Part shown: one piece after another, positions 6,790-53,459 of the stretch
Layout of the letters: each line of letters opens with the position of its first letter
Numbering within the stretch: position 1 is the stretch's first letter
Assembly: GCF_964355755.1 (NCBI RefSeq)
Contig: NC_092678.1
Coordinates: forward strand, 4,622,922-4,686,921
DNA from: Antedon mediterranea
Taxonomy: Eukaryota; Echinodermata; Crinoidea; Comatulida; Antedonidae
DNA length: 64,000 nt
Direction: 5' to 3'
The notes under the pieces: model-generated
Databases searched by the model: none
What the model was told of the DNA's origin: nothing
The model's input: the letters and a program-made list of their open reading frames with translations, nothing else
Translations under genes and position numbers: made by a program

Positions 6790-9700
6790 TTACATGCAAT
6801 TGGTGGAAAGTTTGCCTACGTATGGAATTCACTATTATGAAGTTAAGGATAAAGCAGGAATACCGTGGCTGTTAGGGTTAAGTTATAAAGGCATCGGACA
6901 GTACGATCGTTTGGACAAAGTCACACCTAGAAAAGTAAGATACACAATATCAACCATTTTATACAAACTGTTGTTCACAATAGGGGGAGCTTTCAACTTT
7001 CAATAATCTACAGTACTGTAATGCATTTTGACTGTCTCAAACTGTTTCAACGTCTCAATGTCCATTCATGTGCAGTGAATTTACATGGCATAGATCTTTA
7101 GCCATTGCCTCACGACGAATACTCCCTAATTATACTTATACTATAAAGTTAAATTAGTCAACAATTAACTTTTCCAATCTAAGCAAAATTAATATTACAT
7201 AGATACAGTACAGTAGTTAAGGAAGCTAAAACTTTCCCAAAACTGTGTACAGTATGATGTGCTTTACCGCAAACCTAATTCGTATCCTCATACATTTATA
7301 ACATCATTCCTTCTATTTCCTTTCTTTGAATAATCATGATCGCAATTATTAATTGACCTTTAACCTTTTCAGGTTTTTCCTTGGAGGCAGTTACAGAACA
7401 TCTACTTCAGGGAAAAGAAGTTCTCAATTGAAGTTAACGACCCTAAAAGGTAAGCAAATGCGGTGCTGGTAAACGGCAAATGTTAGTTAATTGTCATCCT
7501 TATGTACGCTGCTATAGACACACAGTCTATAGCAATGTACATAATCAACTATATATGTAAAGAAAGCCAATTTAAACAATTTCAGCAAACTTTAATGAGA
7601 CAATATTCATTTGTTTTGAATAAAACGTATTGCTTAGTGGAATGGATAACAGATTATTTACAGTAATATGTGGGGGAGGAGAGGGGGAAAGGTACAATAG
7701 GAGAAGCATGTCTGATGCATTTTGACTGTTGCATTTTAATAATATTAACATATTTTGTGCTATGTTTGAGTATACCGTATTGCAGAGGACCTATTATTAA
7801 CCAATTTTTATAACTAAGTGAGAACACTAATTGGGAAAATAGTTCCCTCAAATGTTGATTGAAGTAACATCGCCCTCAGTGGATTACTGTATTTAAATAT
7901 CTGACTACTCCTGATAATACTGTAGAATGCCAGTGTGGTGTTAACATATTAATAGCATACTATACTGTACAATGTGCCTTGTCATTGGCGTAAGAATGAC
8001 TATAGTCATATAATCATTTGATAATTATGCAGTCAAGTTAAGCTTTAGTATAATTAAATTTCACCGAATTTGTTTCTTATCTCGTCCTTTGATGATATAA
8101 CAACTGTGTATATTAGGCAGTTACCCACAGTAATCACATGGATGCAGTCTAATATTACTTCTTTCGATTCCTAATCTTCTACGCTCCGTCTTTCTCAGAG
8201 GATCTCAAAGTCAGGCCAGTCATTTACTGTACGACCAGCCCCTTCAGGACTCGCCAGATAACGTTGACGATCCATCAGAATCTAATTCCGACTTCGTTCA
8301 GTAAGTCATAGTCTCTGTGCAGACTGTTATTAGTTGTGCATGATTGTCACAAACTAACACCACCAATTGCCAACCAACGCAGCAGTTTATTTTAATTTTG
8401 TTTTCAGTTTGTAGATAAAATACTGTATTAATTTTGAGATTTTAGCATTGATCACTCCTTTTTAAATGCACGATGCATTAACTTCACTAAAACACATACA
8501 TGTATTACTTTTTAATTTTGCAAAGAAATGTTTTGTTTTGCTTGTTACGATTTTATTTTTTTGCAGTTACTCACCATTTTGAATGCTTGTTTGCCAACAG
8601 CCTTGTGAATTTTCTTGCACCATTATTTTATTATGATAATGATAATGATAATACTTCAATTATGATGATGATAATGATGATTATAACATGAAGATAGCAG
8701 TGTTTGGAATGGTGATAGCAATTGTAATCATAATTATAATAATGATAAGATGATGTTGATAAAAATGATTATAATGATGATGACAATGATTATAATTAAT
8801 GGAAAGAGGAAATTAACAGATAACAATAGAATGGTCAGTAACTGTACATGGGTCATTCCATGTCAAATCAACAAGATTTTTAAAAAGTTCCTGCTCCACC
8901 ATCTTGGATTTTGGCAAAACTTCTCGAAATTGATCCACTATGTGAAAAACCAACTCAACAAAAAAAATTAACCATAAAGAATCCAAATACCAGTTTTACA
9001 GTGTTACCTGCAAGCAAGGCATAATAATTTGTTAATTTATATATTTGATTTTGTTATAATAGGGTGTCTTTAAAAGTTTAATTTGTTTTTTATTTATAGT
9101 CATTAAACATGCATGCATGTACACCTGTAGTTACTCTAGATTTCTGCATTATTTCTAATAATAATATTTAATTTTCTTCATTCATTTCCTAAAGTTTCTT
9201 CACACAATGTTATTTTATTTTCCTACATTATTAATTTATTTCAATATCATGTTTACTTAAAATGTATTATTTAAATCTACAATAATCCATTTTATAATTT
9301 TTCTACTGTGTAAATAAGAAACGCTTTTGTAAAAATAATAAAGAAATTTATTGTTATTATTATTTTATGCCGTTATAGTTTTGCTTTCTATATTTTTCAT
9401 TGTTATTTTTATTTTCAATTTCCACAGAGGATCAACAACTAAACGGCCTTTCGGTTCCAGCAATGTTATCGTACACGCCTGGTATGGCACGCCAGTTTTG
9501 ATCAAGTCTATTTGGAGTATGGCTATAAACCAACATCAATTCTACTTGGATCGAAAACATAGCAAGGTGAGTGTGAAGGGTCTAAAGCTCTGTCTACACT
9601 ATCAAACTTTACAGTACTGTACAGTATGTGACAAAAAAAATGTGATGTGCCCATATATTTAAGGATACAGTATCTCTACCATATTTTGAAACATCATACT

Positions 9701-12700
9701 AGTTTGATAGTGTAAACAGAGCTTAAGCTATTCTGAACAGGAATAATAGGGTACTTTCTTGGTGTCTTGTGAACATTCAGCTGGGCAGAAGTTTTAAAAA
9801 GAACTTGAGTTTAGTTGTAGGACAAATAGAATATGGCGTCCAAATATCACAACATGGGCTTAGCCGAACAAATAGAAAATGGCATTCAAATATAAACTAA
9901 ATTGTAGGCCTGTAGGCCACCCAATCTGCCTCACTAAAACCGATGGTTTTAAATAATGTTTGGTTGTTTAAAAGACTTCTGGATGGCACGTTGGCTTAAC
10001 CCATCTAACTCCCCTTCACTCCAATCTCCATCCATATAATGATTAGCGATACTAAAACATATCTAAAATGTGTAGGCAAATTCTTGCATACAGTATTATA
10101 TAACATACTTCCTACAGCTTATCTTCAATAATGATGTTAATAATATTCCAATAAAAGAAAGGGTAAGTAAACTTTGAAAAGTGGCTTAACGTTGATGCTC
10201 TTTTACGGCAGTTGCTATGACGATGTAATAGGATATAGAGATGGTATAATCTTGAGATTTTGAAATAATCTCTAAGGATTCTGCGGCAATGCTTGAATAA
10301 AGAAATTGTAGCAAAGTTATTGGGTCAATTATTGTAATATTCTGTACACAGATGCAGTACAACATCGCTGAGAGATCCTGAGTGCTATAGAAAAACTGTG
10401 CAGGGTAGTGTTATGTAATACTAAATTATAAATTATTTTTCTCAGTATAATTTTGTTATGTTATATGCTAATAATAAATAATAATATTCTCTTTTGTTTT
10501 ATAACCTTTGATGTCAATCACTTTTTCCTTCCTCTTAACTCTTAATAAAATATTACAGGATATATTCAAAGTACATTAAATTAATTCCTTGTTCCTGTGA
10601 AGTTTATCAAATTACTAAATGAACAACTTGAACAAGTCAGCCACAATAACATAACAATTTGTTGCATGACAAAGAATCAGGGTGCAGTAGATCCAAGATT
10701 TCTAAAATGGAGAAAGACTGATTTGAACAGTTAGCGCTGAACTCCATGGATCCTGCCCTAAAAATATTTCATAGTTTACTGTAAAAATTAAATTATCACT
10801 GAATAAAGATATTTTGGAATTTGACCCAAAAATTACTATCAAACCACAATATCACGTAAACCATACAGTACTCCTGAAGAAATGTTAAATAACATTCAAT
10901 TGGCAATCTTAATTTGTGTGAAGTGCGGTAACCATTTCATTACAATTTTGCGTAGAGACGCTTGATATTTTACGATGTTTGCTCATACTTAACCGACATC
11001 TACTGTGCCTTAACGTCTAGAATTTATTAGCTATTTATTCTCGTGAAATAATTAATTTCAACTTGGTCTGGATTTGAAATATGGATCTATTTTTTATTCC
11101 AATCTACTGTAGCATTATTATAAAGATGCCGATGATGACCATTAAGGTCTAAGATATAGCATATATCTCATTTCTTAACAGATTCTTCAAGTTTTAAAAT
11201 TTACAGACAGTATTAAAATATCGAAATGGAATACGTATAAGCGAGATGCGCTCTATTTAATGTGATGAGCAATAACAAAAGAGACAAAAATCCTATATTT
11301 TACATTTGTGTGGCCATACTGTACGATGACATCATAATATCCAAGGGGTAAAGATTCTGCATGAATTCATATCTACAACATATCTGCTTACATATTAAAT
11401 TAAAAACATTGGGGGTCATGGATGATCCTGAGGAGCTATAATAGATTCAAAATAGGCATAATTTTGACAATATTTGTCACTTTTGCAACTAAAACGCATG
11501 CAAATGATCTAAATCGACGTGTTTGTATGACATCATTTTAAATTGAAATGATGTCAATCTTTTTTAAAATGACTAGGAAAGGCTGTAAAATCATAATTCA
11601 AGAGAAAAACACATGATTTTCATGCTCCTTGCGCACCTTACGCAAAAAATCTTTCGCGCGCGTGGACATTTTTGACATGCTCAAAATGTCATGATCAGCT
11701 TAATTTTGCGCATTTTGAAATGTTAAATGCGCGTGCGTGCGTAACTTCTTGTGAAACATGCCATTTTCAATCCATAAAAAGTTTGCCCTTGATATGACTT
11801 TAAATTTTCACCAAGTGTCAATTCAAAATTACTTTTCGTTTATAATCTATGATCAATCATTGAAATTCATAAAATCGCTCTTAACACACGCTGCTAACAA
11901 AATTTTCTTGCACATCTACAGCTACTGTACAGGTCAATCTTATGACAAAGTTATGCAATCTTATGTTGACCATAATTAGAGATACGCTGCGAACAAGAAT
12001 AGAAAAAAAAAATATCCTGACAATAACAAGGGGTTATCCGCCAAGTGCGGATAACCAATGATGGGAAATAAGTTTTACATGTGATAGAAAATTATAATTA
12101 AGAAGAAAAAAGTTTTCAATAAATTTTATAATCTTACAATTTTCCTTTTTTTCAGATGCAACATCCGATGTCTAGAAGCTTTAGTCAAATTGCTTCTGAT
12201 TTAACGCAAAGCACACCCTCTATAACATCAAATAATTCCGATATGACTAGTGAGACAAGCAGCAGTACAAATAGCTTAACAATTCAAAAAGAATTGAAGG
12301 CTAATCCATGTAAGTTACTTTTTAATTGTTATTGTATTGAATTTGACGGGACAAGAATGAAGAAGAATATTCCGAACAACACTCGACACTAATAACTAAA
12401 TGAAAAATTGATTAAAATTGGTTTTTTGTTGTTGTGTGATGATTAGAATTCACCTTAAATTCATTCTTGCTGTAAATTATTCATTAAGAAGAGAGATGTC
12501 AAGGGTTACCTAGATACTGTACTTCCCCTTGAAACAACGACCCTCTTTCGTAAATATTCAAATTATTGTGCGAAATGTTCAATCTGGGAGAGGTGACAGT
12601 ATAATCTCATAACAGTACCAGTTATTAATTTAGTTCCTATAATACTGTATATATTTTGTCATAGAACTACAGTATTTCAAAATTATTTTTATTTTTTAAC

Positions 12701-15700
12701 CGAATTTGAACTCTTAACTTGTGTAGTGTGTTTAGTAGTGCAAACTGTGATGTGAAAATGAATAGTTCCTGGTTTGATACCCATCTTGGAACAGTTCCTG
12801 GTGTTGACACTTAAATTGAAAGTAGATATTTAACGAGTACTTAGAATCCTAATTGGAATCTTAGATTGTGAAATGATATCAATCTATTTTGCCAAAGTGG
12901 ATTCTTTAGTTGCAAGATGCTTAGACGACCGGGTATATTTTATGCATTATTGAGGTCTGTTACAGACAACTAGAAAGCACATTGAGAAAGTTGCTTATTA
13001 GACAGGGTTTATCTTATTTATGTCTGAAAGTAAACGGTAAGTTTAAAACCTGGATAGGAAGTTTTAGGAACTTAACACTCTATTCGTGTTTATTGATTCT
13101 TGGAAAGTTCGCTACCGTACTTTTTGACGAGTTTTTGAAGAGTTTTGACATTACCAGTTTATTTTGTTACCATAAATTATTATATTATTTTTCTTGTAGT
13201 GAATGCAGATATGGTTGCAATGAGTGCAAAAGCAGAGCAGGACATGGTGTCCGCACTACAAGCGAGAAAAGCAGCTCTTGAAGAACGACTAAAATCAAAA
13301 CAAGAAGAGTTTAAGAAGATGTGTCTTAGAGAAGCAGTAAGTAAACTTAAATATGACTTTTTAAAGTTTATTAAGTGAGACTTAAGCTCTGTCTACACTG
13401 TAAAATTATTTTGACAAAAGAAATGTGATGGGCACAAATATGGTAATGATATGCTCAAATATGGTAGTGATATGACATCGTGTCCATATATGAGCACATC
13501 ACAATTTTTGTCACATAAAGTTTGTCTGGCTAAGTTGAGCATTTCCAATCTTTAACCCCGGCTTTCAGAGTTTTATATTGTCGAGGCAATTGTCTTTCAT
13601 TTATTGTTGATCATAGAGAAAGTTAGCGTGATGTATATTTGAACATTTTATGTTTTCATTTTCTCAGGAAATTTTAGGGGAATTACCAGCAGATTATCCA
13701 AAGGAACCTGGAGAGACGTTACCTGTTATCAGAAAGAGAGTCGGAACAGCATTCACTTTATCTGCTAAATTAATGAATGGAAGTACAGAGGTATTGAATC
13801 AGTTATTTATATCATAAACTCACACTAATGATAATTAAGCGTGTTTGTATAAAGTGCAGCTATGTACATAACACTTAAGACAATCCTATAGAAAACAACT
13901 AAAAATATACTGGGTATGCAAGATTTTATCAGATTTGTTACTTTTTTTTGCAGGAGGACTTTAGTAAAGAGCTTGCACAGATGGAGAAAGAACATGAGAT
14001 TCAGAGTAACATATGCAAGGCCGCTCTACGACTCTCATGTGATCCATCTCTGAATAAAAAATCTCGCAAAATACGCAGAGAAAATTATAAATCAGCTTTA
14101 CAAAAGGTAATAATTTATCTCAATCAATCAAAATGTTAACATTGTCATTTCTATAATGCCTTTACAAAAGCCAAGGGCTTTAAAAGAACCGATTATCAAA
14201 TGTATTTGTTTCAACAATGTAAACATGTTTGTCTTAAACATTGTTCTATTTCTATCAATTAAAATTTTGGGGGCATAAAGTTATTTAGAACAGTGCATTA
14301 CAGTGTGATATATAATTGTTGCGTTTATTTTTACACAGTTGGAAGAAATAGAAGGAAAATTGAATGAAAGTAGACTGGAACATGGACTGGATCCGATCTC
14401 ATCACAAGGTGTAAGCAACAGTTACAACACTTTGCCACGAGCAAGCAAGACTCCACCAATGTCACGAACGCATAATGTTAAGGGAATGAAAGCATTGAAA
14501 AGCGAGTCTGAAAGGGGGCGTGCAAAGACCACTGAGAGTAAAGGCGTACGTGCAAGGTCGAAATCGATGCCACGACCGCACTTGAACGGAGGTTTGACAT
14601 TGCCGTCTCCTTTAAGATCACGAAAGAGAGATGGTTCACTCCCGCGAGAATCTCCCCCCGGTGATATTGAATTTGATAATGAATTTCCCCAGCCACAGCA
14701 ATATTCCACACATAGTTTAGGAAGAGCTCCACGCAATCCTCACGGATTACCAGCTCATACAGCAAACACAGATAGAGGAAAGTTTAAAGTTAGTCCAGAA
14801 TACGCAGAGATCGGGCCACCACGGCAGCGAAGTGGTTCTAACAGTAAACAAAGATCAAAAACAATGGTAAATCAATACATTCCATCATCGCCTAGTAATT
14901 CCACCGCAAGACCAGTTCTACGTCAAAGCAATTCATTCAGGGGTAGTTCGAGCTCAAACTCGGATTTTAGTGATACTTCTTCTCGTAAACAAAGCGTTCC
15001 ATATGATTCACATCCTCAACAACTTAGCTACAGTTCATTGCCTCGACAGAAAATACATGCAGTTAATTATCAATCTACTAATACTTATAGTTCAGAGGAC
15101 GAACAACCGCGTATACGACAGCATGCTTCATCGATGTTTAACTTACAAACACAAAAAACTGAATACAATTATAGTGACGATGGTATTACTTATGAACAAC
15201 CTATCTCAAAAGTTCAAAGTCAATCTCCTAAGAAACACGGTTCAGTTGGTAATTTACGTTCAGATTACGCACCACCAGAACATTTAACCGATGAGACTGA
15301 TCAGTATCGACGTAATTCCCCTGCTCATAAAGACTATAGAGGGCACCATAACAGGCCACGTCAACCGAGATATGACCACAATGATCAGTCGAGGCATCTT
15401 TATGAAACTCGCGATGGGAATGGTGCCTATTCTTCAGACGACCAGTACTCCACAGGAAGTGGCGATAGAACTACCTCCTATAGAGGGGGCTATTCAAAAG
15501 ATATGCGATATAATTCACCCCAGCAATATCCACGAACTAATGTGCACGATGCACAGCACAGACGTGATTATTATGCTAGTGAGCAACATGAACAATATAG
15601 AGGGAGTACTCATAGTAGTCCTAATAGAGGGCGGTATCCACCACCGAACCAGAACTCGTGGCACCATGATCAACGGTCAAATTATGGCGATAATCAGTAC

Positions 15701-18606
15701 GACTACTATAACAACGGTCAAGCGTATTCAGATACTTACCATCATGGTACGCGACAGGATAATACGCAATATTATCAAGAAAACGGTGAAAATGGTCACT
15801 TTAAGGGATCAAGTTATGATGTACGTGCAGCTTATGCGTATCACTATCAGAGACAAAATAGCCATGAGGATTATTATAGTGACAGGTCATCGAACTATAG
15901 TGACCATTCAAGGGAGTATCTTGACCCTGCAACACCACATGCGGACAGACAGGGTAATTATGCTCACCAAACTTATCAGGACCAATATATAAATAAAGAC
16001 CCTCGGTTAAGAAACGATTACGCACCAAGGAATGATTACATGGCCAAACAGGAGTACCAACCACAGAATGATTACGTACCGTATCAACCGGAGCCGATGA
16101 TGGCGGACTCTGTGTACGCCCAGTCGCATCGTACAATAAGTGTTCAACAGTCGATACCTGAACCGCAACCTGCCGAGTTTAAAACGGCAACGACCATGAT
16201 TGTGCGACCTACAACGACATACAGTTCAAATTTAGTTGTAAGCAAGACCATGTACCAACCGGTAGCGAGAATGACGTGTGAACCGGTTGCGCCAGAACCG
16301 GCGGTATCCCATAGGTCTTCAAGTTCTAGCAGGTAGGTCACATGACCATTCTAAATATAATATAATATTTATAATATTAATTTGTTTATTTCTGGGTCAT
16401 AGCAACTTATATTAGCTTGGGTACATCGCATTTCATATCTATATATTAGTAGTATACTTATTTATCATAATATACATAACAACACGCTTACTGGGAATAA
16501 TATTATATCTTATGTCTGATGAACATTGGTTTTCATACAATGTTTTCCAGTGTACTGTTTTACTGTACAAATATTGAGAAAACATTAAACACAATTTAAA
16601 TGCTAAAAATTACATTAAAAAGTTATTGTATCACTTATTATTATTTATGATTTCTTTTGTTATGCAGGTTTTGAGTTTTTATTTATGTTTTATATTCTTG
16701 GATAATATTTGAGCAAATTTAATGGATTACCAATTAACTATTGCATAAATTTTCATAACCACCTCATTTGTTGCGTTGCCGAGTAAAGATCCAAAATCCA
16801 AAGTTCTTATTAAACAATAATTAAAATACCTAAATTATTATTTAGTTTGCTCAAATATTAAATTATTTTTGTTTACTTGTTTTTGTTGGGATATGTTTTT
16901 TGTTGTCATTTTTGTTTTTGTTTCCTTATTTGTTTTAATACTTCTGTTCTTTTGGTTCTTTTCATAATTTCTTTTAACAAATACAAAAACTTTTTTCGGT
17001 GTTTCTTTTACTTTTTTCAGTATTTCTTTACTTTAAATTTGTTTAAAGGTTACGATATTAATTCAGGCATATTTTAACTTTATAGAGCGTATATTATTTA
17101 TCAAAGAAAAAACAAATTAACTACCAAATTGAATTAAAGGACTTTTGCTAATTTTAAAAAAAATATAAATTAAATTACATTAATATTTATTCAGTTACTG
17201 AATATTTAATAAACTTGTTACCATTTCATTATTTAACACAATTCATATTAAATTTTCATTAACGCTTCTATATAATATAACCACCTGCCCCTTACTTAAC
17301 ATTGTGTACTTAACCCGATCTTAACATAACAATATGCGAGCTGTAATGCTCAATGTCACGCCATTATTCTTCTCTTTAATCGCATTAACAATTTCACCCC
17401 ATCGTCATCGCTATACACTTTATGTTGGTTTTCTGTTTGCTGTCGTTTATTCACTATAGCCTTAATTCATTCACCAATGTAGAAGATAAAGATTGCAGAG
17501 GAAATATTGAGCATGATGGGAGCATGACCTCCGACCCGGCAATGTAAGATCTCAAACTCACTTAAAGTACTCGCGTGTATAAGTGCTCCAAATAACAATT
17601 GTCTTCAAAAGTTTGGATCGGATTTATAAGACACAAATCCTTTTAAAAAACATATGTTTTCTAATGTTTAGTTCCCACTAGAGACGCAACTCAAGGACGT
17701 TAGCATCACAAGCGATAGATTATTTAAATCTGTCGCATGTCATTGGTCAACTTGCTTGAGTTGAGTTGCGTCTTTAGTGGGAACCAATCTTGAATGTAAA
17801 CATATGAACACTTATTCACGCGAGTATAATTTTTTTATCTTACAGCTTTCATATTTAATGCTTTTACTACAATCACTATTATATTTATATATATTTATTG
17901 GTATATTTTCTGCCTCCAATTAAGGACCATTTGAGGTGCTTATTGAACCATAACTTGGTCTTTGATTGGAGGAAGATTCTATATTGGCATAGCAGGTGGT
18001 GTTTGAGTTTAGCACTTTTATAATAAAGGCGTATATTTTATAATTTTGGTTTTTGGGAACATTGTTGTGTGTAAAATATGCATATCATGTTTTTGGTATT
18101 TTGGTTTTTATTTTTCTGGGATAATATAAAAAAAGTCTTCATGGTCAAAGTAAAACTTTAATAAAAAATTGTAAAATTTCTTAGTTCATGTAAAAATGTT
18201 TTTATTTATGAAATTATTAACTTTAAAATGTCTATCCTAGCCATAAATTAAACAAGTTTAAAATGCCGTCAAATAAGTAATATGAATTCTATAATAATAT
18301 ACCATTTTGGATGAAATATGTTTCTATTTTTATGCTTGAAATGGTTTTATTGTCAATTGGCTAATTGCTAACTTTCACAACAAAAAAAATATTCAAAAAA
18401 TACAATTACATCATAAAAGTTCCCTTACAGACATGTCCAATAAAGTTGTTTGTTTGTTTTGATATAGGATTCATGCAAGCCCAACGCCAGCATCATCCAG
18501 CGATGGCAGCCATTTAGAAGAGGATTCCGGTCTTGGAAACACACTCACCCCCGAGACAACGCTAGACGAATCTGCACGTAAAAAAGGTTCCAGTACTCTA
18601 GTATGA
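6790..18606 (+). CDS. FRMD4: FERM domain-containing protein 4 (FRMD4A/FRMD4B-like), 5'-partial
   Basis: Exons: 6790-6934, 7373-7449, optional 8199-8300, 9428-9566, 12156-12309, 13200-13336, 13668-13790, 13954-14106, 14339-16332, 18468-18606; phases agree throughout. About 1019 aa are in the window without the optional exon. The first exons encode the end of FERM F2 and the F3 lobe (VESLPTYGIHYYEVKDKAG, PWRQLQNIYFREKKFSIEV, ALIKSIW-like VLIKSIWSMA, QHQFYLDRK). Exons 13200-14106 plus the start of the next encode the coiled-coil CUPID/DUF3338 region (KMCLREA, RKRVGTAF, LDPISSQG), which in mammals binds cytohesins. The long exon is a disordered Ser/Tyr/Arg/Gln-rich tail. The protein ends in STLV, a class I PDZ-ligand pattern. 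In mammals FRMD4A/B link Par3 and cytohesin/Arf6 at epithelial junctions. Assignment to A or B is not meaningful in a non-vertebrate. Confidence 0.9.
8199..8300 (+). other. FRMD4: Predicted in-frame cassette exon inserted in FRMD4 FERM F3 lobe
   Basis: A 102-base stretch lies between TTTCTCAG and GTAAGT. It is open in the gene's phase and divisible by three, so it can be included or skipped without changing frame. It would add 34 residues (begins GSQSQASHLLYDQ, ends SNSDFVQ) between the conserved NDPKR and the GSTTKRPFG strand. It is acidic and Ser/Gln-rich. Vertebrate FRMD4 proteins go straight across this point. Both this exon and the next constitutive exon begin AGGATC, so either acceptor restores an Arg or Gln codon. 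It could also be a chance pair of splice sites. Confidence 0.5.
8630..8800. repeat. Degenerate GATAAT/GATGAT microsatellite
   Basis: An AT-rich simple-sequence tract in an FRMD4 intron, made of TGATAATGATAATGATAA, ATGATGATGATAATGATGAT and ATAATGATGATGACAATGAT blocks broken by short unique sequence. The short open frame over it is a by-product of the repeat. Confidence 0.75.
9583..9727. mobile_element. MITE family A, copy 1
   Basis: Inverted ends AAGCTCTGTCTACACTATCA on the left and TGATAGTGTAAACAGAGCTT on the right, about 145 bp overall, with a nearly palindromic interior (TGTGACAAA, GTGATGTGCCCATATAT). It starts about 16 bases after the 9566 splice donor. The ends run into TTAA on the right side. 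Three more copies lie at 13383, 27489 and 39975. Confidence 0.8.
11216..12055 (-). mobile_element. Inverted copy of the 3329-4915 repeat family
   Basis: Read on the minus strand this matches the 3329-4915 element. GGTTATCCGC-loop-GCGGATAACC (about 12035-12053) is the hairpin end, the interior shows the same ACGCG-rich words, and the far part contains the same AATATAGGATTTTTGTCTCT-type stretch and GAGCGCATCTC word. It ends inside the element relative to the longer copy, so it is truncated. The 73-aa open frame within it is not a gene. Confidence 0.75.
13383..13540. mobile_element. MITE family A, copy 2
   Basis: Begins TTAAGCTCTGTCTACACTGT just after the 13336 donor and ends with TTTTTGTCACATAAAGTTTG. 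The interior has the mirrored TGTGATGGGCAC and TGAGCACATCACA words. The right terminus has decayed (GGCTAAGTTGAGC). Confidence 0.7.
17670..17786. mobile_element. MITE family B, copy 1
   Basis: About 117 bp with inverted ends GGTTCCCACTA-type (GTTCCCACTAGAGACGCAAC on the left, GTTGCGTCTTTAGTGGGAAC on the right). The interior holds inverted ACAAGCGA and TCGCATGTCATTGGTCAA words. It lies in the last FRMD4 intron. Related copies are at 31572-31750 and 41070-41280. Confidence 0.8.
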
Positions 18607-19250: not shown

Positions 19251-19258
19251 TAGCAACA

Positions 19259-19264: not shown

Positions 19265-20261
19265 TTTACAATTTTGTTTTTTTTTGTTTTCATTTTAGAG
19301 TGTTGATGTCTTGTTGCAGCTCGGTACTGTTTGTGTTCTCAAGATCTGTAATCTTAACGATGTCTGCTTTTTCTATTTCGTTTTTGTGTATAAATTTGTA
19401 AATTATAAATTATTATATTTGAAAGTGTTTTGGTTCAGCAAATTATTTCTATTTAAAGAAGTTTAACTCATATGTATTCCTCTAAAATGGCTGAATATGC
19501 TTTGTGATTGGAATGGTATCCTAATCCAAATGTTACAATGTCTCATTTCCTTGTAAATCATTCCTCTCCCCATCCCCACTCTTTACCCTATGTAAGTTTT
19601 GTACTACTTGTTCATTCCAAGTTTCAATAACCAGAAGTAGTTGGTTTTTTAATGTCTATGTACACATATTCATCTAAGAGGAACATTTTTTATTTAACGT
19701 GTTGAAATTTAATTTGTTTAGTTTCAACCATTTTTATCAAATTTTATTTATGAATTTTGGTTATTTAGTATTATTTTGAGAGACTGATAACAAACTGCAC
19801 AAACTCTAGAATACATTCTGAAAATGTGTTTTAAATTTCTTTCTACTGTGTTTTTATTTTGTATGAAAATCACCCAAATTCAAAGCTTTAGCAAGACATA
19901 CATGTCCAGGGCACAATTAAGTACTTGCCTGTGTTGATGACTTGATAGCCTATTGTGACAAAAGAAGCCAGGAGAGTTGGGGTTGATCAACTTTTGAGCC
20001 TAACAAGAATTTAAGCCTAAAGTTACAATTGCTGTTTTAAAGACCAAATATGTTTTAAAATTGTGTGTGAAACTTAAGTAAAACTGTTAATTATTATTAT
20101 GCTATCATAATAAGTTGTATGATTTAATCTATTCTATAATTTGATTGGTTGGATAATAGTAATCTCATTATTCTATTGCCAGACTTATTGCCAGGTTGAC
20201 TGTCATTTTTATATCATTTTATAAAGTAGGGGGGAGACATTATATCATTATTATATACTCT
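19265..20261. other. Intergenic, nothing recognised
   Basis: AT-rich sequence between the FRMD4 end and the 35-bp minisatellite. No open frame with recognisable similarity and no clear repeat. Confidence 0.5.
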
Positions 20262-23293: not shown

Positions 23294-32786
<9,493 letters not shown>

Positions 32787-38500: not shown

Positions 38501-41500
38501 TTCTTACAGAATCCATAATCTTTAGCTAATCCATTTATTAGCTAATCCAATAGCTACTGAACCTAATCCGATCTTTACCTAATCCAATCTTTTCCTAATC
38601 CATCCTTTACCTAATCCAATCTTTTCCTAATCCATCCTTTACCTAATCCAATCTTTCACTACTGTACAATCTTTAGCTTTTCTGTATATCAAAAAGTAAC
38701 TCCTGTTTTTTAAAATGTCATTGCAATTTTCAGAGTGATTTTGGACCAGATAAAACACTAGTGGACAAAGACTTAGTAGGGCTGATGAAGCTACTTCCAA
38801 CGTTACAACATCCATTCATTTATCCTGTGACATACGCATCAGCTAACGAATCAGGAGGACTCGCTATTCGAACATTCCATGCTACAGGCACACTACGTGA
38901 TTTCATCTGCAAGGTAATTCAGTTTTTGCTTTTGAATGTATTTGCTGATTTTTGTAGTATTACTATAGAGAGCTAACTAGGTGACCGTGAAGTGGTCCCT
39001 CTCCTTTATCTTTGTATTTTTTCCATAGATATACTATTAAACTACTAGAGAGTCAACTAGTTGACACCAAAGCGGTCCCTCCTATTATTACCATAGAGAT
39101 ACTGTACTATTAAACTACTAGAGAGTAAACTAGGTGACACCAAAGTGGTCCCTCCTATTATTACCATAGAGATACTGTACTATTAAACTAATAGAGAGTA
39201 AACTAGCTGACACCAAAGTGGTTCCTCTATATTATCTTTATATTATCTTCATAGAGATACTATTAAACAACTAGAGACACAACTAGGTGACATCAAAGTG
39301 GTCCCTCCTATTATTACCATAGAACTACTATTAAATTACTAGAGTCAACTAGGTGACATCAAAGTGGTCCCTCCAATTATTACCATAGAACTACTATTAA
39401 ACAACTAGAGACACAACTAGGTGACATCAAAGTGGTCCCTCCTATTATTACCATAGAACTACTATTAAATTACTAGAGTCAACTAGGTGACATCAAAGTG
39501 ATGCAGACAAGCTAGGAATGCAGCCTCTCCATTAGTGTCTTTGTATTATTTTATTTTGATATTTTGTTTGCAGGCTAAACCAAAGTTTCATTTTCTGAGA
39601 AAATACTGCAAACCAAAGTCTTTCACAGCTTTCAATCTGATGAACATAAAAACATATGGCCGACAAATCCTTGAGGTAAGGTTAATTTTTTCAAAAAGAA
39701 TATTAAATATATAAGAATTATTTTAAGAATTTTACACTAACATTTTCTACATATTATTAATCAATGATTTCTCTTTCTCGTGTACGTAGGCGTTAAAGTT
39801 CTTAAAAGAGAAAGGCTTTCCTTACGGCCACCTGCATGCATCAAACGTCATGTTAGAGGGAAACACCTGTCGTCTGCTAGATATTGAAAATAGTCTGCTA
39901 GGATTACCATCCTATTATAGGATGTATTTTACACAGTTTAAGAAGATTAATGTAAGTATATTAAGATATTTTTATGTAACAAAATAATGTGCCCATATAT
40001 AGACATGATGATGTCATATCAGTACCATATTTGAGCACAACACATTTTGTTACATGAAGTTTGATCGTGTAGACAGAGCTTAAGGTGTTCTAGAGTAGAG
40101 ATGTCTAGTAGGAGAAGGGTAATTTTGTATTCTATCAAAATCAAAACATTGATTCCGGTCAGTGTAATTCCAGCAATAATGTTGCTTTTGTATTTTTGAC
40201 AGACAATGGAAGCAGTTGATGTTTATTGTTTTGGACATTTACTTTATGAGATGGTTCAGGGTGAGCAACTGAATGCAGCAACCAAAGATGACTTTCCACA
40301 AACAATTTCTGCTCCAATTAGTAAGTACATTACACACTATCGTCAACAGTGGCGTAATGGCTATGAGCGCTCACTGGCTAAACCCAGGGGCTCCAGAGCT
40401 CAAAGGGCCCAAAGCATGAGCAGCCCAATGCAACTACCCAGCGTTGGAGGGCGCCTTAGGAGTGTTAAACCAGGGGCCTTTTCCACCAGTGTTACGCCAC
40501 TGCTTGCAGATTCTACAATTGACTTTGTACGCTTTCCCAATACTCTACTGGTAAAAATGTAACACATTGATTTATTGGTTTTATTTTAGAATCTGTTTTG
40601 GAATCAATTTTAAATACAGAATCCTGTAAAAGCAAATTACCTAGCATAGATGAACTGATAGCTGATCCGTAAGTTGTTAGTTCATTTGAATTGTTGAATA
40701 AACTAGGTCGTTTCAAACATGTTTTAGTCTTCATATTATTTAAACTTACTTATTGGTTGATTTTGTAACTATGGACATCCGTTTCAGAAATAAGAGTAAA
40801 ATGAACGAATGAATTAAAAGCAGTTAGCACACTTGTGAAAATATAATTTATTTGTCGTTTTATTTGCAGATTGTTTAGCGACGTACCAATGCCCGGAGGA
40901 GATCGTCCACAATTTAGAATTCCAAGTAAACTTAAAGAGTCTGTCAAGTTGTTTCAAGAAAATGGCATTGAGAAACGATTAAAAGAAGAACAGAAACAGG
41001 TATGTGATATTTGTCATTTGCAATTGTACTCTGCTCTGTTCCAAAATATGTGTATGGGTCTATAACACTAAAGCGTGGTTCCCACTAGAACGTGATTTAA
41101 CAGAGTGATGTATCGACGCAAGGTGCTGTATTGCGTAATCACAAGTGGGAACCGATGACGAAACAGTGCTGCAAACACCACAGTTTTGATTTCATGGGCG
41201 GGGGCGCAAACACAATTATCGGAAGGGCATTTTCTTATGTTGCGTAGTTTGCGTTGCATCGCTAGTGGGAACCACGCTTAAATACATTCAAGATGGCTAG
41301 GTACAATCAATAACTATATTATGATATTTTGTTTAAGTTACTCACTTTCACTATATCTTTAGATTTCATCGCATAGAAGAATTACAAAAGCACATGCCCA
41401 TCACAACTCAGCAGAGGAGAAGAAGAGGAGAAAGAAAGTGTCGATGAAAAAAAGGATGTCGGAACAAGCGCTAGTGGTAGATAAGACATCTGAGGCACCA

Positions 41501-44500
41501 AGTAATGGTACACTAAGCCCCACTCATAATGGTATGTAAGCCCCACCCATAATGGTATGTAAGCCCCACCCATAATAATAATATGTAGGACCCCCACCCA
41601 TATTAGTAGGTATGCTGTAGCGTTACTCGCCTACAGACCTTGCGATTCTAGGCCGATGATGTATGAGGCAATACATTAGTAAGGTATTCATATGCTGGCC
41701 TGGATGGTAGACCAACAACCTTATAATTTGGCTAGTTACGGATGTATCTGGGTAGGTGAATGTTATAACTGAGTGAGAACACATGTTACCTTTTATTGTG
41801 TGAACACAACTTTTATTGTGAATATAGGCTATCTTTCCTTTTTTTGTTTAGGTTCTGGTTCAACAACTCCGTCTAGTGCGCCAACATCGCCAGCCAGCTC
41901 CATCACTTCTCCAGGTAAAACTAATCTAATGGATAGGTCATTGTTTCTTTCTTTCTCTTACATACTGTACTACACACAGTAGGTGAACCTATTGATGCCA
42001 CTTGTCTGCTAATAGTACTGCCATTGCACAGACCAGAACTAGATTGTGTGTTGAGCAGTTGCGCCACATCGTGTGGTGTGTAGTTGTGCCACATTGTGTG
42101 CTGTGCAGTTGCACTACATTGTGTGCTGTGCAGTTGCGCTACATTGTGTGCTGTGCAGTTACGCGGCATTTTGTGCTGAGCAGTCGCACTACATTGTGTG
42201 CTGTGCAGTTGCGCCACATCGTGTGGTGTGCAGTTGCGCCACATCGTGTGGTGTGCAGTTGCGCCGCATTGTGTGCCTTGCAGTTGCGCCGCCTTGTGTG
42301 CTGTGCAGTTCGGCGCATTGTGTGCTGTGCAGTTGCGCGGCATTGTGTGCTGAGCAGTGGCACTACATTGTGTGCTGTGCAGTTGCACTACATTGTGTGG
42401 TGTCCAGTTGCGCCACATCGTGTGGTGTGCAGTTGCGCAGTACTGTGTGCCTTGTAGTTAAGCCGCACTGTGTGTTGTGTGCTGTGCAGTTGCGCGGCAT
42501 TGTGTGCTGAGCAGTGGCACTACATGTGTGCTGTGCAGTTGCGCAGTACTGTGTGCCTTGTAGTTGCGCCGCACTGTGTGTTGTGTGCTGTGCAGTTGCG
42601 CAGCATTGTGTGCTGTGCAGTTGCGCCACATTGTGTGGTGTGCAGTTGCGCAGCATTGTGTGCTGTGCAGTTGCGCCACATTGTGTGGTGTGCAGTTGCG
42701 CCACATCATGTGGTGTGCAGTTGCGCTGTATTGTGTGCCTTGTAGTTGCGCCGCATTGTGTGCTGTGCAGTTGCGCCACATTGTGTGCTGTGCAGTCGCA
42801 CTTCATTTCTGCTACTTTTCAGCTGAGTATCAATGTGCTAGATTTCCTGTTCTGTTGCGCTGACTAGTTCTAATACATCACTTAAAATCTTGTACAACTT
42901 GTACCTTTATTTTTCTCACATCCTCAGTTATTTAAAATATATATAATTGCATTTCTTATGGCATGAGCATGTTTGTTAATTGACCTATGACCTTAGTTAG
43001 ATAGATAATACTGACATTAATTTCACGAGTGTATACATAGTTTGAACGTTTTAATGTATAGAATATTTGAAATATGATGTATATACATTTCTCAGTAACA
43101 TTGTGTTAACATTAATGTTTTTTGTTACACATTAACTTTCAGAGAATCTTGATAATACAAATGCAGCCGATTGAAAGGCGATTTGGTTAGTGTTATTGCA
43201 TTAGGTCCGTTGTAATGCACTTTTATATGCATTTTGCACGTGTATTTGTGCGTGCATTTTGCACATGTATTTGTACGTGCATTTTGCACATGTATTTGTA
43301 GTCTGTAAAACAACGAAGAACAAAATAAGATCTTGCTTTCCAAGTTTAAATTTCACCCATTTGGGTATCATCTGGCAATCTAACCCGACTTGGCAATCTA
43401 ACCTGACTTGGCAATCTGGTTGACCTAGTCTGACCTGACTTTGCTATCAAGTTGACCTAGTCCAACCTGCCCTCTGACCTGTCGTATCAAGTGGGAAGCT
43501 CAGATCACAATTTGTTCTTCTTTCTACATATTGGTTGACAATCACGCTGGTTTCTTTTCTGCATTTTTCTTTTTGTCCTTTGAGTGTCTTCCATACTAAC
43601 GTGCAAAAGGTGTACTTGTACTAATAACTTGGCTATTTTAGTTGCTCTTCTATCTGCATGTTTCTAGCAAAATGTTAATGATTTTAAAGTCATTGATCAG
43701 TAGACACATCAATATAATATATAGTATTTTATATTGCAATTCATTAAACATTGATGTGTTTCATTTTTAATCTGGTTTAATTTACTTTTTGGATTTAATT
43801 TGATTACCAGTTCTGATTTTATATTTCTTATTAAAATACTGATTTTTTTTGCAGTAATATTAGTAATAGGTATTATTCTGTGGCATGAAAACTCCAATCT
43901 TTTTCTTCTCCGCTATCAAATGTTTTCTAAGCAAACAACATTTTTTTTTTCATTTGGAGACTTTGAGATCATTTCCTTCCCTTACTTTCTAATTATCTGG
44001 TTATTTCTTTTAATATTGCGTGATTAAATAATTCAAGTTCTGAATGAAACGCATTTTATCAAGTTTTGAATTTGCAATTATAAGAAGGAATTCTGATAAT
44101 GTAGTTTGTAAATTTGCATGCTAATGAGAAATTAAATATTTTCATTGTAGTATTTATTTTTAGAAAACAAAATCTAGAAGTTGTAGATAAATGGAGGCCT
44201 TTTGTGTTTTTGGAAATGAAATTTAAAAAAAAGAAAAGATAAATAGACCGATACTGATAATAAATAATAAAATAAGTTATATCATATGCTCCAAACAAAT
44301 CAACTATTTTGTTGTTAGAATATTCTTTAATTTTGTATATATTTTGAATAGCATACCTCTAGTAGTGCTGTACTAACGCTGCACATACTGTACAGGAGTT
44401 TGTGTTTTACTTTTAATCATTTTCAGTTTTTGCATTAAAATACTTTCGTCTTTTTGTTTAAATCTTACACTGCTTATCTAATACACATTTCTCTTTATTT

Positions 44501-44769
44501 TTAGAATATTAATTTATTTGAGATGTTACAAGCAAACTACCAACATTTCCATTTGAATAAATATTATTATTGTATCTCTAGGATCCGCAGTACCCTCACC
44601 ACCAATGGCACCGCCTCCACCAGTGGCACCGCCTCCCCCAACTTCTTCAGCTTCGCCTCAAACAAACGGATCAACTCCAAAGAGAGGTGCCCTGTTAAGT
44701 TCTATTCAAACGTTCAACGCTGGAAAGTTGAAAAAGACCGACACATGTATGAAAAACGCAGTTGGATAA
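35525..44769 (+). CDS. PXK: PX domain-containing kinase-like protein
   Basis: Exons: 35525-35626, 36003-36053, 36486-36720, 38344-38495, 38734-38913, 39574-39675, 39790-39951, 40203-40320, 40590-40668, 40870-40999, 41363-41531, 41852-41914, 44582-44769; total 576 aa (human about 578). Residues about 15-125 are the PX phosphoinositide-binding domain (ENSWQINRRYSDF, PLPPKKVFGNMDREFIAERQ). A kinase-like domain follows (PHWEVVEPLKDIGWRLRKSY, KTYGRQILEALKFLKEKGFP). The usual HRD and DFG motifs are replaced by GHLHASNVM and LLDIENS, so it is a pseudokinase, as in mammals. The tail is basic, then proline-rich (PPMAPPPPVAPPPP), and ends with a WH2-like RGALLSSIQTFNAGKLKK. In mammals PXK binds endosomal membranes, actin and Na,K-ATPase beta subunits. 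The exon 11 donor may be at 41531 or slightly upstream. Confidence 0.95.
38030..38331. repeat. Tandem duplication of about 150 bp at the 3' end of PXK intron 3
   Basis: Two adjacent diverged copies (about 38030-38178 and 38179-38331) share ATTAATTGACATTCT, ATATCATACAGTACACA, and GAAGAATACATAAT-ATATTTCTTG in the same order. The second ends about a dozen bases before the exon 4 acceptor. Confidence 0.8.
38519..38670. repeat. Short CTAATCCA-based tandem repeats in PXK intron 4
   Basis: TTTACCTAATCCAATCTTT and TTTTCCTAATCCATCCTTT alternate several times just after the exon 4 donor. Low-complexity, intronic. Confidence 0.7.
38985..39500. repeat. Approximately 65-75-bp minisatellite in PXK intron 5
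   Basis: About seven units each contain AACTAGGTGAC, A(T/C)(C)AAAGTGGTCCCTCC, TATTATTACCATAGA and TACTATTAAA. Unit length varies because the spacer between ACCATAGA and the next ACTAGAG differs. It fills most of the intron. Confidence 0.85.
39975..40083. mobile_element. MITE family A, copy 4
   Basis: Ends GAAGTTTGATCGTGTAGACAGAGCTTAA-type (right terminus at about 40083); the left side is partly decayed, starting near TTTTTATGTAACAAAATAATG. It lies in PXK intron 7, again close to a splice donor (39951). Confidence 0.7.
41070..41280. mobile_element. MITE family B, copy 3
   Basis: TAAAGCGTGGTTCCCACTAG on the left and CTAGTGGGAACCACGCTTA on the right, 211 bp, in PXK intron 10. The interior differs from the other two copies. 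Confidence 0.8.
42045..42800. repeat. 25-bp minisatellite (about 30 units) in PXK intron 12
   Basis: Units of the type CAGTTGCGCCACATTGTGTG plus CTGTG, with G/C at the CTG/GTG position and CGC/CAC changes. The array keeps two forward and two reverse frames open, producing several 90-150-codon open frames (Cys/Val-rich forward, Thr/Gln/His-rich reverse). These are repeat by-products, not genes, because the array is between two clear PXK exons. Confidence 0.9.
42801..44581. other. Rest of PXK intron 12
   Basis: AT-rich intron sequence. It includes three direct repeats of GTGCATTTTGCAC(A/G)TGTATTTGT near 43215-43290 and short CTGACTTGGCAATCTAACC repeats near 43375-43420. No exon recognised; open frames here have no known similarity. 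Confidence 0.5.
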
Positions 44770-45544
44770 ATCATGAATGTCAAACAAGAATACAGAAATG
44801 AATTATATTTTTGTGTGCTTTTATAATAATTGCATTGTCATCATTTGTAAGTAAGTGTTGGTTTGAAAGTGTTACTTAATTATCTTATAAATATAGAAAC
44901 TTAGCTAGGATAAATTATACTCAGTGTATAACGCAATAACTAATAGTATTGCAGCTAATGTATTTGGCAGTCCGTTTCTCTCGTGCCTGTCAAATTTATA
45001 TATACATATATTTTATAACTTGTAAATATACTGATGCAGTAGCTTTTGTCTTTACCGCAAATTCTGGTTAGAATTATTTCAGGATCCATTTTATATATTA
45101 AGAAATATTTTAGGATTTTGGCAAGAGTTTCAGATTATTATAGCATCTTTTGGTCATTCTTATAACATTTGAGGTAGGTAGGTAGGTGAATGCAGAAACT
45201 TTTTTAAATGATATAACAGTTTTCTCAACATCGTAATTCAGCCAACATCAAATGGCTATTTTGAAGTCGTGGATTTGATGTGCTGATAAACTATAAAATC
45301 TTGTACTTCACAATCTGTCCATTTTATGTTTTCTAGTCTGCTTATTCATTTTGGTGCTACAATCCCAAAATTATATTATGTATATCATCATATATATCAT
45401 GTACTTACAACCAAAACATACCTTATTTATATCTTGTTTCTATCTAATTCATAATTTTATATTCTATTCTAATACTGCAAATTAACTAATTTTTGTTTTT
45501 AATTGTATTAAATCATCTTTTTTTTTATTTACATCATCTTTGAT
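44770..45544. other. Probable PXK 3' UTR
   Basis: AT-rich sequence between the PXK stop and the first AATAAA at 45545. A short GGTAGGTAGGTAGGT run lies near 45175. Nothing else recognised. Confidence 0.45.
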
Positions 45545-45550
45545 AATAAA
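45545..45550 (+). terminator. PXK: Candidate PXK poly(A) signal
   Basis: AATAAA about 776 bases after the PXK stop, followed by a GT-rich stretch (GTATTTGTTTGTC). Convergent with the PDHB signal at 45841. Confidence 0.45.
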
Positions 45551-45840
45551 GTATTAAGTATTTGTTTGTCTAATGTACTGAAAATATGTTACTTTTTTGT
45601 TACACAGTACTTGATTGGCTTAATGATTGTATTATTATTTTGTATAGCATTGTATATAAGAATATATGATTCTATCTGTAACTATTAAATCAAAATCAGA
45701 TTTGTACATAATTTTTACTTTGTTTGAATGTTATAGATCATGTTTTAATTGTTGTGAGGGAAATGATAAAAACATTTTGTTTCTTTTACACATTTTCTCA
45801 ACAAAAAAAATGAAACACAATCGCCTCACTTATGACGATC

Positions 45841-45846
45841 TTTATT
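45841..45846 (-). terminator. PDHB: Candidate PDHB poly(A) signal
   Basis: TTTATT on the plus strand (AATAAA on the minus strand), about 155 bases beyond the PDHB stop. PXK and PDHB transcripts would end about 290 bp apart without overlapping. Confidence 0.45.
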
Positions 45847-46000
45847 CCGGATACTGTTGAAAAAAAATTGTAACATTGTACATGTCAAATAATTAATTGT
45901 TTTGGTGGAGAATGCTATATAAAATACACTAATTGCAGCAGTTTTAACACTCCACACTTCTATTTATACAGTTTTTAATTTATGATAAATAACTCTATTT

Positions 46001-47978
<1,978 letters not shown>

Positions 47979-48341
47979 GATTTATGGTATTTGTTCCGGG
48001 AAGCCTGGCACAAGAATGATTTTTTCCCTAGAAGAAAAATGGTTAAGCGCGCATGTAAAGCCTAGCCTACCAAAAGTTTCTCGCGTTAAGGATTAATAAT
48101 TTTAGAACGAGGCTGCAGAGTATGACCTTTTGAGTTTCGCAATACGGTCATCGAATCTGACCAATAGGAATGCAAGGAATTCCGTGACGTTCGATTTAGA
48201 AGACCGGTAGCACGCTCACCACCGTCGTCGGTGTTCTTGACTCTCAAAAAGTTCTTTATTTTATATTTTTCCGAATATAAACTGACCGATAATTGTGTCA
48301 GCCGGTTATCTGAGTTATTAGCTAAATATATCAAATTCAAA
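47979..48341. promoter_or_regulatory. Divergent promoter region shared by PDHB and SLC25A3
   Basis: Only 363 bp separate the two start codons, and these genes are transcribed away from each other. The interval is richer in CG dinucleotides than its surroundings. It contains CCAAT (GACCAATAGG, 48159-48168) and a CRE half-site TGACGT (48185-48190), and no TATA box near either start. A shared promoter is inferred from geometry; both products act in mitochondrial energy metabolism. Confidence 0.6.
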
Positions 48342-50749
48342 ATGCTTTCTTCTATATACAGTTCACTGAAAAGTGATTCTTTCAAGAATCCGTTTTCCTC
48401 AACCGCGAAGGCTAGCTCGCCGGTTGATCTTCTTGCGGGAGGAAGTGATGTTCCAGCCACAAGAAATATAGCTGCCGCTTCGACTGGAAGTAAGTTAGCC
48501 TAGGCTAGGTACACTAGGGTATGATGATGAATTTTTGCATAAACAATACCATAACCTTTGGTTTAAAGAGAACGGAGGAGGTTGATGTCATTCTAATCTT
48601 TAGTCCCTTTTTAATATTATAACCAAACTCACTTAGCAGACAGAACAGCAGAGTACAAAATAGTGGTGACATGAATGACTCACTAATTTTGTAAATACGA
48701 TTTCCTACTGCAGCTGGCCCAGGACAGGCCTTAGCTAGCTAGACCTGATACTGATAAAAAAAATAATAACTTTATAAGCATGTTATTTTTACCTCCATGG
48801 CATTACATAGAAATTTGTTCCAGAATTTTTTTTTTTTTTTAGGCACAGAGACTGTGGAGTGGATTATTATTATTTATTGAAATGTATCTTTTTTTTTTGT
48901 ATTAATTTATATAGATAGTTGTGAATTTGGTTCCTCTAAATATTATGCACTTTGTGGATTTGGTGGTATTCTTAGTTGTGGGCTTACACATACAGCAGTT
49001 GTACCTCTGGATTTGGTGAAATGTAGAATTCAGGTAAAGTATCTCCATACAGATGACAAGATTATTTTTGATTTTTTTTTCTGTAATTACTAGACCATTA
49101 AAAAAAGAGTAGTTGCCATAACACATTTTTAGATGTTCCAGTTTTCAATATCTCTTAGTTTTCCTGATTCAAATTTCATTATTCCCCTGTTTTATAATGA
49201 AAAAGGACATCATACATGTGCTTTAATAATAGGCAATTTGTCTAAAAAAATTGATATCTTTTTACTGTTTTACAAAGGCCCGTTTACCCATAGACAAAGT
49301 TTTTTTTAAAACCATTACTGATTCGGCCTGTGACATTTTCTTCTATGTTTCCCTTTTATTTTTCAGGTTGATCCAGACAAATACAAAAATGTGTTTCATG
49401 GATTCCGTACGACCTTGTCAGAGGAAGGTGTTCGAGCCCTTGGTAAAGGGTGGGCTCCAACCCTCATAGGCTATTCCATGCAGGGACTTTGCAAATTTGG
49501 CTTCTATGAAGTTTTTAAGATTACATACAGTAACCTTATTGGTGAGGTAATTATATTTGTATTGTTTGTATAATAATCACTGTTACCCCCAGTTAGTCTC
49601 CAGTTAGTTTTAACTCCAGCTACTAGTACTATAACTGGACAAGCTTAATACAGTCACCGCTTTAATTTTATTCTATTTTTTCATTAGGAAAATTCGTACC
49701 TGTACAGAACATCGTTATATCTGGCTGCAAGTGCAAGTGCCGAGTTCTTTGCTGACATAGCACTGGCCCCGATGGAAGCAGTGAAGGTTAAGATTCAAAC
49801 ATCGCCAGGCTGGGCTAACACTTTAAGAGAAGGCGTCCCTAAATTGATGAATTCTGAAGGCATTAGAGGGTAAGCCTAACAACTTTCAATTCAAAGCAAC
49901 TAAACCAAGCATAATTTCATAAAATCAAATATACTTTATTCATCATCGAAAAAGAATAAAGAAATAAGAAAAATAGGTTGATAAAAAAAAAATTCTAAAT
50001 TTTCTTCTATTCAGTGTAAGCCATGAGATACACACCATTATAGAATTTGATATTAATTAAATAATTGTTATTTTATATTTTAGATTCTACAAAGGACTTC
50101 CTCCTCTATGGCTGCGACAGATCCCATACACTATGATGAAATTTGCATGTTTTGAGCGTACTGTAGAGGCTCTGTACAAATTTGTGGTTCCCAAACCACG
50201 ATCGGAATGCACTAAAGGCGAACAGCTTGTTGTCACATTTGTCGCTGGTTATATTGGTAAGATTCAATTTCAACAAACTAAACAATAGGGACTTGTAATG
50301 TTGACAATGCCATGGTTAGAATCATTGTAGAATATTCACTGTTAATTTATAATACTCTTCATTTCCTTTTGTATAGCTGGTGTATTTTGTGCCATTGTTT
50401 CTCATCCCGCTGACTCTGTTGTCTCTAAGTTGAACAAGGAGGTCGGTAGCACTCCACTGCAAGCTGCTAAAGATCTTGGAATGGCTGGTAAGTACCACCG
50501 CCAGTACAATGTTCAAGAGGGACGCATGTCGATATTATGGCTTGATTGTGTGTTTGATGTGTTGAAACTGTTGTTTTTTTAGGTTTATGGAAAGGTCTAG
50601 GACCACGTATAATCATGATTGGTACGCTAACTGCCCTTCAGTGGTTTATTTATGATTCGGTCAAAGTATACTTCAGGTTGCCACGCCCTCCTCCACCGGA
50701 GATGCCAGAAAGCTTGAAGAAGAAATTGGCTGCCAAGGAATCGCAGTAA
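48342..50749 (+). CDS. SLC25A3: Mitochondrial phosphate carrier protein
   Basis: Exons: 48342-48489, 48915-49033, 49367-49546, 49688-49869, 50084-50256, 50377-50487, 50583-50749; 359 aa (human 362). A Ser-rich presequence-like N terminus is followed by three mitochondrial-carrier repeats, each with the Px[DE] signature ([32 protein letters not shown]). Strong family stretches include [77 protein letters not shown] and [16 protein letters not shown]. It imports phosphate with protons across the inner membrane for ATP synthesis. The start at 48342 gives a family-length protein; the frame is open upstream to 48231 but that start is less likely. Only one version of exon 3 was seen, unlike the 3A/3B pair of vertebrates. 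Confidence 0.96.
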
Positions 50750-51099: not shown

Positions 51100-51194
51100 C
51101 AATTTATCAGATGTTGAACCTTATTTGAACTAATTTTTTATTTTTATTGCAATGACCATAGAACAAAAACTGTTTCTAAACCAACTTTAGGATA

Positions 51195-53335: not shown

Positions 53336-53398
53336 ACTGGCCTCCCATTACATCATTCTCGTTGTTGTTTAAAATAATGATTTAAAATTCAGTGAATC

Positions 53399-53459
53399 AT
53401 GGAGATAGTGCCTATCAACATTTTGAACGAGAGGTGGTTAGAATTAGAGAGTGATCCAG
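53399..53459 (+). CDS. BAP1: First coding exon of a BAP1-like ubiquitin C-terminal hydrolase, 3'-partial
   Basis: ATG at 53399 opens a 61-base exon ending at a GTAAAA donor in phase 1. It encodes MEIVPINILNERWLELESD then P and the first base of Gly. NxxWLELESDPG is the start of the UCH domain in BAP1 (human has NKGWLELESDPG near its N terminus); UCHL5 has the weaker WCLMESDPG. The extra eight or so residues before it are unusual. The expected next exon (LFTLL-like) was not found to 64000, so intron 1 would exceed 10 kb and hold all following repeats. BAP1 removes ubiquitin from histone H2A and binds HCFC1 in mammals. The identity rests on about 12 residues. Confidence 0.55.

What the first reader, a model, noticed from the sequence alone, without database searches (positions are those of the whole stretch)
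6790..53459. Conserved ancient gene neighbourhood matching human 3p
PXK (+) and PDHB (-) are convergent neighbours here, as they are in human 3p14. FRMD4 and a BAP1-like exon are in the same window, and FRMD4B and BAP1 also map to human 3p. HCFC1 and SLC25A3 are the only recognised genes that moved elsewhere in human. This suggests retention of a pre-vertebrate linkage block over more than 500 million years.
Basis: partly seen in the sequence, partly recalled or inferred. Interest (0 to 1): 0.6.

Follow-up and report, generated by a model that had tools for sequence, protein, structure and literature searches.

The report
Ancient chromosome shared with human 3p
This stretch of an echinoderm-like genome lies on a chromosome whose genes are still largely linked on human chromosome arm 3p and its whole-genome-duplication partners, and two tail-to-tail gene pairs appear to have stayed side by side since before vertebrates: a real but expected kind of deep conservation.

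Summary
The genes are real. The window carries FRMD4(+), HCFC1(+), PXK(+), PDHB(-) and SLC25A3(+) on a 26-Mb contig (C9); PXK and PDHB are convergent, 1.23 kb between stops, as in human 3p14.3. One item is wrong: the "BAP1-like exon" is a relic duplicate of BAP1's first exon; the intact BAP1 gene is 131 kb upstream of the window on the same contig. HCFC1 and SLC25A3 probably did not "move": C9 also carries homologues of Xq28, 12q23 and 10p genes, which fits vertebrate 2R duplication of one ancestral chromosome.

Flanking DNA adds BAP1, NEK4, ATG7 and VGLL4, all human 3p, with ATG7/VGLL4 again convergent. In a pre-chosen test, 11 of 14 scorable human-3p genes have their best match on C9 (7% of the genome) against 0 of 9 controls. 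Gene order is otherwise scrambled: a known ancestral linkage group plus two surviving adjacencies, not an intact block. The host is most likely an echinoderm (tektin-1 much closer to sea urchin than to mammals). Ordinary kind, good example.

The parts
6764..18603 (+). FRMD4 (single orthologue of human FRMD4A/B): FERM_C, CUPID and C-terminal exons; a further FERM exon lies upstream of the window at about -10.4 kb
   Evidence: Pfam CUPID/FERM_C; exon reading; single locus
23312..32625 (+). HCFC (host cell factor; orthologue of human HCFC1/HCFC2): Kelch exons and FN3 exons
   Evidence: Pfam Kelch_HCF and fn3; strong genome hits only here
35525..44769 (+). PXK (PX domain, kinase-like domain, C-terminal WH2), 13 exons
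   Evidence: spliced model 58% identical to human PXK recalled from memory; Pfam PX, Pkinase, WH2
46001..47978 (-). PDHB (pyruvate dehydrogenase E1 beta), convergent with PXK, 1,231 bp between stop codons
   Evidence: 76% over 327 aa; PDB human PDHB E about 1e-169; N-terminal exons and stops
44770..46000 (.). PXK/PDHB tail-to-tail intergenic segment with facing polyadenylation signals (AATAAA on + at 45545; on - at 45841)
48342..50749 (+). SLC25A3 (mitochondrial phosphate carrier), divergent from PDHB; 363 bp between start codons
   Evidence: 81% identical model; Mito_carr; CpG o/e peak 1.26 at 48000-48499
53352..53500 (+). Relic duplicate of BAP1 5'UTR + exon 1 + intron-1 start, preceded by a 42-44 bp minisatellite (51204-53330); not a BAP1 gene
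   Evidence: 78% to C9:4492066-4492198 and 73% to C9:1205783-1205915; alignment and absence of other BAP1 exons

Best explanation
The window is a piece of a chromosome (C9) descended from an ancestral deuterostome/bilaterian chromosome. In the vertebrate line that chromosome was duplicated twice (2R); the copies survive in human on 3p, Xq28, 12q23 and 10p, which now share out its genes. In this animal, most likely an echinoderm, it stayed whole while its gene order was shuffled by inversions. PXK-PDHB and ATG7-VGLL4 remain adjacent because tail-to-tail genes with close 3' ends offer almost no safe place for a breakpoint. Shown: gene identities, positions, strands, C9 enrichment. Inferred: 2R partition, host taxon, and the small-target reason for pair survival (the weakest step).
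For: C9 flanks hold BAP1, NEK4, ATG7 and VGLL4 (all human 3p) beside the window genes. Pre-chosen 3p genes: TKT, IMPDH2, PSMD6, SUCLG2, UBA3, ALAS1, SYN2, WDR82, FLNB, WNT5A, ARPC4 best on C9; CTNNB1, RPL15, RPL32 not; 11/14, binomial 1e-10. Controls 0/9. Xq28/12q23/10p set: GDI, G6PD, SEPHS1, HSP90B1 on C9; DKC1 and PAH not (binomial 4e-4). Two convergent adjacencies; under full scrambling of 300-1000 genes P(>=2 in an 11-gene stretch) is 1e-4 to 1e-5. Human order FLNB...PXK-PDHB-KCTD6-ACOX2 as listed in PMC8385949; ATG7, VGLL4, SYN2 together at 3p25 in PMC6888875. Linkage kept with scrambled order is the published pattern (PMC7269912; PMC11175523). Tektin-1: 606 bits to 8snb (sea urchin, from memory) against 410 to the next species.
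Against: No third lineage could be examined, so shared ancestry of the two pairs rests on one human comparison plus improbability. Human positions and strands are partly from memory. WNT5A and SUCLG2 belong to families, so their C9 assignments are best-hit only. The pair probability was computed after seeing the pairs. The reason for pair survival is untested.
Confidence: 0.85

Rival explanations
1. Chance: the genes came together independently in this lineage and in vertebrates.
For: Adjacent genes arise by chance at a low rate; only human is compared.
Against: 11/14 pre-chosen 3p genes on one contig against 0/9 controls; two adjacencies with conserved convergent orientation in one 290-kb stretch.
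Confidence: 0.03
2. The pairs are kept by selection for co-regulation: a genomic regulatory block, a shared insulator, or antisense 3'-end regulation between PXK and PDHB.
For: Facing polyadenylation signals within 1.2 kb; gene-dense bilaterian microsyntenies show higher coexpression (PMC8851819).
Against: No expression or chromatin data; both pairs are tail-to-tail, which the neutral small-target account predicts without co-regulation.
Confidence: 0.2
3. Assembly error joined unrelated pieces.
For: None found; the isolated BAP1-like exon could have suggested it.
Against: No N in the window or in the fetched flanks; the relic is only 78% identical to the gene, so not an assembly duplicate; C9-wide 3p content cannot come from a local error.
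Confidence: 0.02
4. The block is functional clustering of BAP1 with its partner HCF-1 (HCFC), with the rest bystanders.
For: BAP1 and HCFC are about 150 kb apart here and their products bind each other (from memory).
Against: They are on different chromosomes in human (from memory); many unrelated 3p genes share C9.
Confidence: 0.03

Closest known systems
Bilaterian/chordate ancestral linkage groups (Simakov et al. 2020, PMC7269912; deuterostome ALGs, PMC11175523)
   Same: Genes of one ancestral chromosome stay on one chromosome while order is scrambled; vertebrate copies are spread over several chromosomes by 2R
   Different: C9 was not assigned a published ALG letter here (supplementary gene lists not available); tested with a few dozen marker genes, not a whole orthologue set
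Conserved metazoan microsynteny (e.g. Wnt5-7 block, PMC8851819)
   Same: Adjacent unrelated genes kept over more than 500 My
   Different: That study requires blocks of three or more genes; here only two-gene adjacencies match human
2R paralogons / pre-1R chromosomes (PMC6193309, PMC8302630)
   Same: C9 carries homologues of genes now on 3p, Xq28, 12q23 and 10p
   Different: Ohnologue trees were not built

Membership tests
Ancestral linkage group (conserved macrosynteny) | Orthologues of one linkage group concentrated on one chromosome | tested here: met
   11/14 pre-chosen 3p genes on C9, controls 0/9
Ancestral linkage group (conserved macrosynteny) | Linkage kept although gene order is scrambled | tested here: met
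   3p markers spread from 1.1 to 25.8 Mb of C9 in non-human order
Ancestral linkage group (conserved macrosynteny) | Correspondence to a named ALG/CLG and presence in several phyla | not testable with these tools
   No other animal genomes held; supplementary tables not readable
2R paralogon of vertebrates | One invertebrate chromosome matches several human segments | tested here: met
   Homologues of Xq28/12q23/10p genes also on C9, 4 of 6
2R paralogon of vertebrates | Gene trees showing duplication at 2R | not tested
   No trees built
Conserved microsyntenic block (three or more genes) | At least three genes in close conserved proximity | tested here: inconclusive
   Two pairs conserved; BAP1-NEK4 adjacent here but about 0.3 Mb apart in human (from memory); SYN 0.65-0.85 Mb from ATG7/VGLL4 on C9
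Genomic regulatory block | Long-range enhancers of one gene inside a bystander | not testable with these tools
   No chromatin or conservation data for this genome

The most novel reading that the evidence does not exclude
Surviving half-billion-year adjacencies are biased towards tail-to-tail pairs with close 3' ends, so that PXK-PDHB and ATG7-VGLL4 mark a general rule about where animal chromosomes can break.
Probability: 0.25. Interest if true: 0.5.

Novelty: new member of a known kind. Interest (0 to 1): 0.35.

Why it matters
It places a specific human-3p disease-gene region (BAP1, PXK-PDHB, ATG7-VGLL4) on one ancestral chromosome and explains why HCFC1 and SLC25A3 sit on other human chromosomes: they look like survivors of sister copies made by 2R. 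The two convergent pairs are concrete test cases for why some neighbours resist shuffling.

Tried and rejected
Identifying the species from the mitochondrial genetic code: no COX1 in the contigs. Reading the window BAP1 exon as the start of a BAP1 gene: rejected. A literature report of PXK-PDHB synteny: none among the held open-access papers. Chromosome-number searches in genome notes did not name the species. KCTD6 was uninformative (large family); ACY1, ABHD6, MITF and FHIT gave no match at the search threshold, and only best candidates are scored.

Full report
What was checked. The window is G000:C9:4622922-4686921 in a 354-Mb assembly of 18 contigs; C9 is 26.05 Mb. The window has no N. FRMD4 (+), HCFC (+), PXK (+), PDHB (-) and SLC25A3 (+) are all real. 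PXK, PDHB, SLC25A3 and FRMD4 each occur at one locus in the genome, apart from weak family matches. PXK ends at 44769 and PDHB's stop is at 46001-46003, so the pair is convergent with 1,231 bp between stops and facing polyadenylation signals. PDHB and SLC25A3 are divergent with 363 bp between start codons, over a CpG o/e peak of 1.26 at 48000-48499.

The BAP1 exon. A search with the UCH domain family found BAP1, UCHL5 and a UCHL3-type gene elsewhere. The complete BAP1 is on C9 at 4492131-4497500(+), about 131 kb upstream of the window start. The window copy is 78% identical to the BAP1 5'UTR/exon 1/intron 1 start, its original ATG is TTG, and no other BAP1 exon follows within the window or the next 60 kb. 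A third copy is at C9:1205783. All three copies sit next to arrays of the same 42-44 bp minisatellite, so the duplication probably involved that repeat (inference).

The flanks. Reading 162 kb upstream and 60 kb downstream gave, from low to high coordinate: UGT(-), an SLC6 transporter (+), BAP1(+), NEK4(+; 73% over the kinase domain), a BORCS6-like gene, an amidase, a GPCR, ATG7(+; 60% over 681 aa, Pfam ATG7_N E 1e-104), VGLL4(-; Pfam VGLL4 E 2e-7, conserved METxLDVLSxAAS start and double TDU region), a CEP55-type gene, C-type lectins, then FRMD4 and the window. Downstream is rich in retroelements. ATG7 and VGLL4 are convergent, as in human 3p25.3 (strand from memory). BAP1 and NEK4 are both 3p21.1 in human (from memory).

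Is this more than chance? I chose human-3p genes before seeing their places here and searched them as concatenated fragments. Of 14 that gave a scorable match, 11 have the best match on C9: TKT, IMPDH2, PSMD6, SUCLG2, UBA3, ALAS1, SYN2, WDR82, FLNB, WNT5A, ARPC4. Exceptions: CTNNB1 on C2, RPL15 and RPL32 on C7. KCTD6 was left out because its many relatives make a best match meaningless; ACY1, ABHD6, MITF and FHIT gave no match. Nine control genes from other human chromosomes gave 0 on C9. C9 is 7.35% of the genome: binomial 1e-10, Fisher 3e-4. Of six genes from Xq28, 12q23 and 10p, four are on C9 (GDI, G6PD, SEPHS1, HSP90B1), two are not (DKC1, PAH). So HCFC1 (Xq28), HCFC2 and SLC25A3 (12q23) need not have moved: their human segments look like sister copies of the same ancestral chromosome, which is what 2R predicts. 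This step is inference; I built no gene trees.

Order. The markers are scattered over C9 from 1.1 to 25.8 Mb in an order unlike human, the published pattern of deep synteny (PMC7269912; PMC11175523). Against that background two adjacencies with conserved orientation in an 11-gene stretch are unlikely under full scrambling (1e-4 to 1e-5 for 300-1000 genes), though this was computed after seeing them. Human order around PXK-PDHB is as listed in PMC8385949, and ATG7, VGLL4 and SYN2 are listed together at 3p25 in PMC6888875. Synapsin is 0.65-0.85 Mb from ATG7-VGLL4 here.

Host. Tektin-1 from this genome scores 606 bits to PDB 8snb (sea urchin sperm doublet, from memory) and 410 bits to the next species, human or another mammal; this points to an echinoderm or a close relative. 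No mitochondrial contig was found.

Mechanism. Shown: gene identities, strands, positions, C9 enrichment. Inferred: one ancestral chromosome, whole here and split by 2R in human; pair survival because convergent genes with close 3' ends leave almost no harmless breakpoint. The rival, co-regulation, cannot be tested here.

Verdict. Observation partly confirmed, interpretation partly supported, kind already known, with two worthwhile test pairs.

Noticed in passing
window 51204-53500; C9:4490500-4492200; C9:1203500-1206000: BAP1 exon 1 with its 5'UTR is present in two extra diverged copies along C9, each next to arrays of the same 42-44 bp minisatellite (inverted at the real gene).
   Followed up: partly
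window 47978-48342: PDHB and SLC25A3, two mitochondrial-metabolism genes, are head to head with 363 bp between start codons over a CpG-rich spot: a likely bidirectional promoter.
   Followed up: partly
C9:23.450-23.457 Mb; C9:25.72-25.75 Mb; C9:6.80-6.83 Mb: SUCLG2-TKT, PSMD6-FLNB and SEPHS1-HSP90B1 matches lie within about 5-20 kb of each other on C9; these genes are far apart in human (from memory).
   Followed up: no
L005:2084-4883 (window coordinates -57.9k to -55.1k): CEP55-type protein with EABR, a TNIP/NEMO-like ubiquitin-binding coiled coil and a C-terminal zinc finger.
   Followed up: partly
window coordinates -49.3k to -42.6k (L006, L007): Tandem array of at least three C-type-lectin-like genes between VGLL4 and FRMD4, judged by eye.
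   Followed up: no
window 59009-59326, 63220-63945 and 64-124 kb downstream: Reverse transcriptase and integrase fragments; the downstream flank is largely retroelements.
   Followed up: no
window 20256-20817, 33383-33977, 42043-42796, 54878-56861: Several minisatellite arrays with 25-88 bp units between and inside genes.
   Followed up: no
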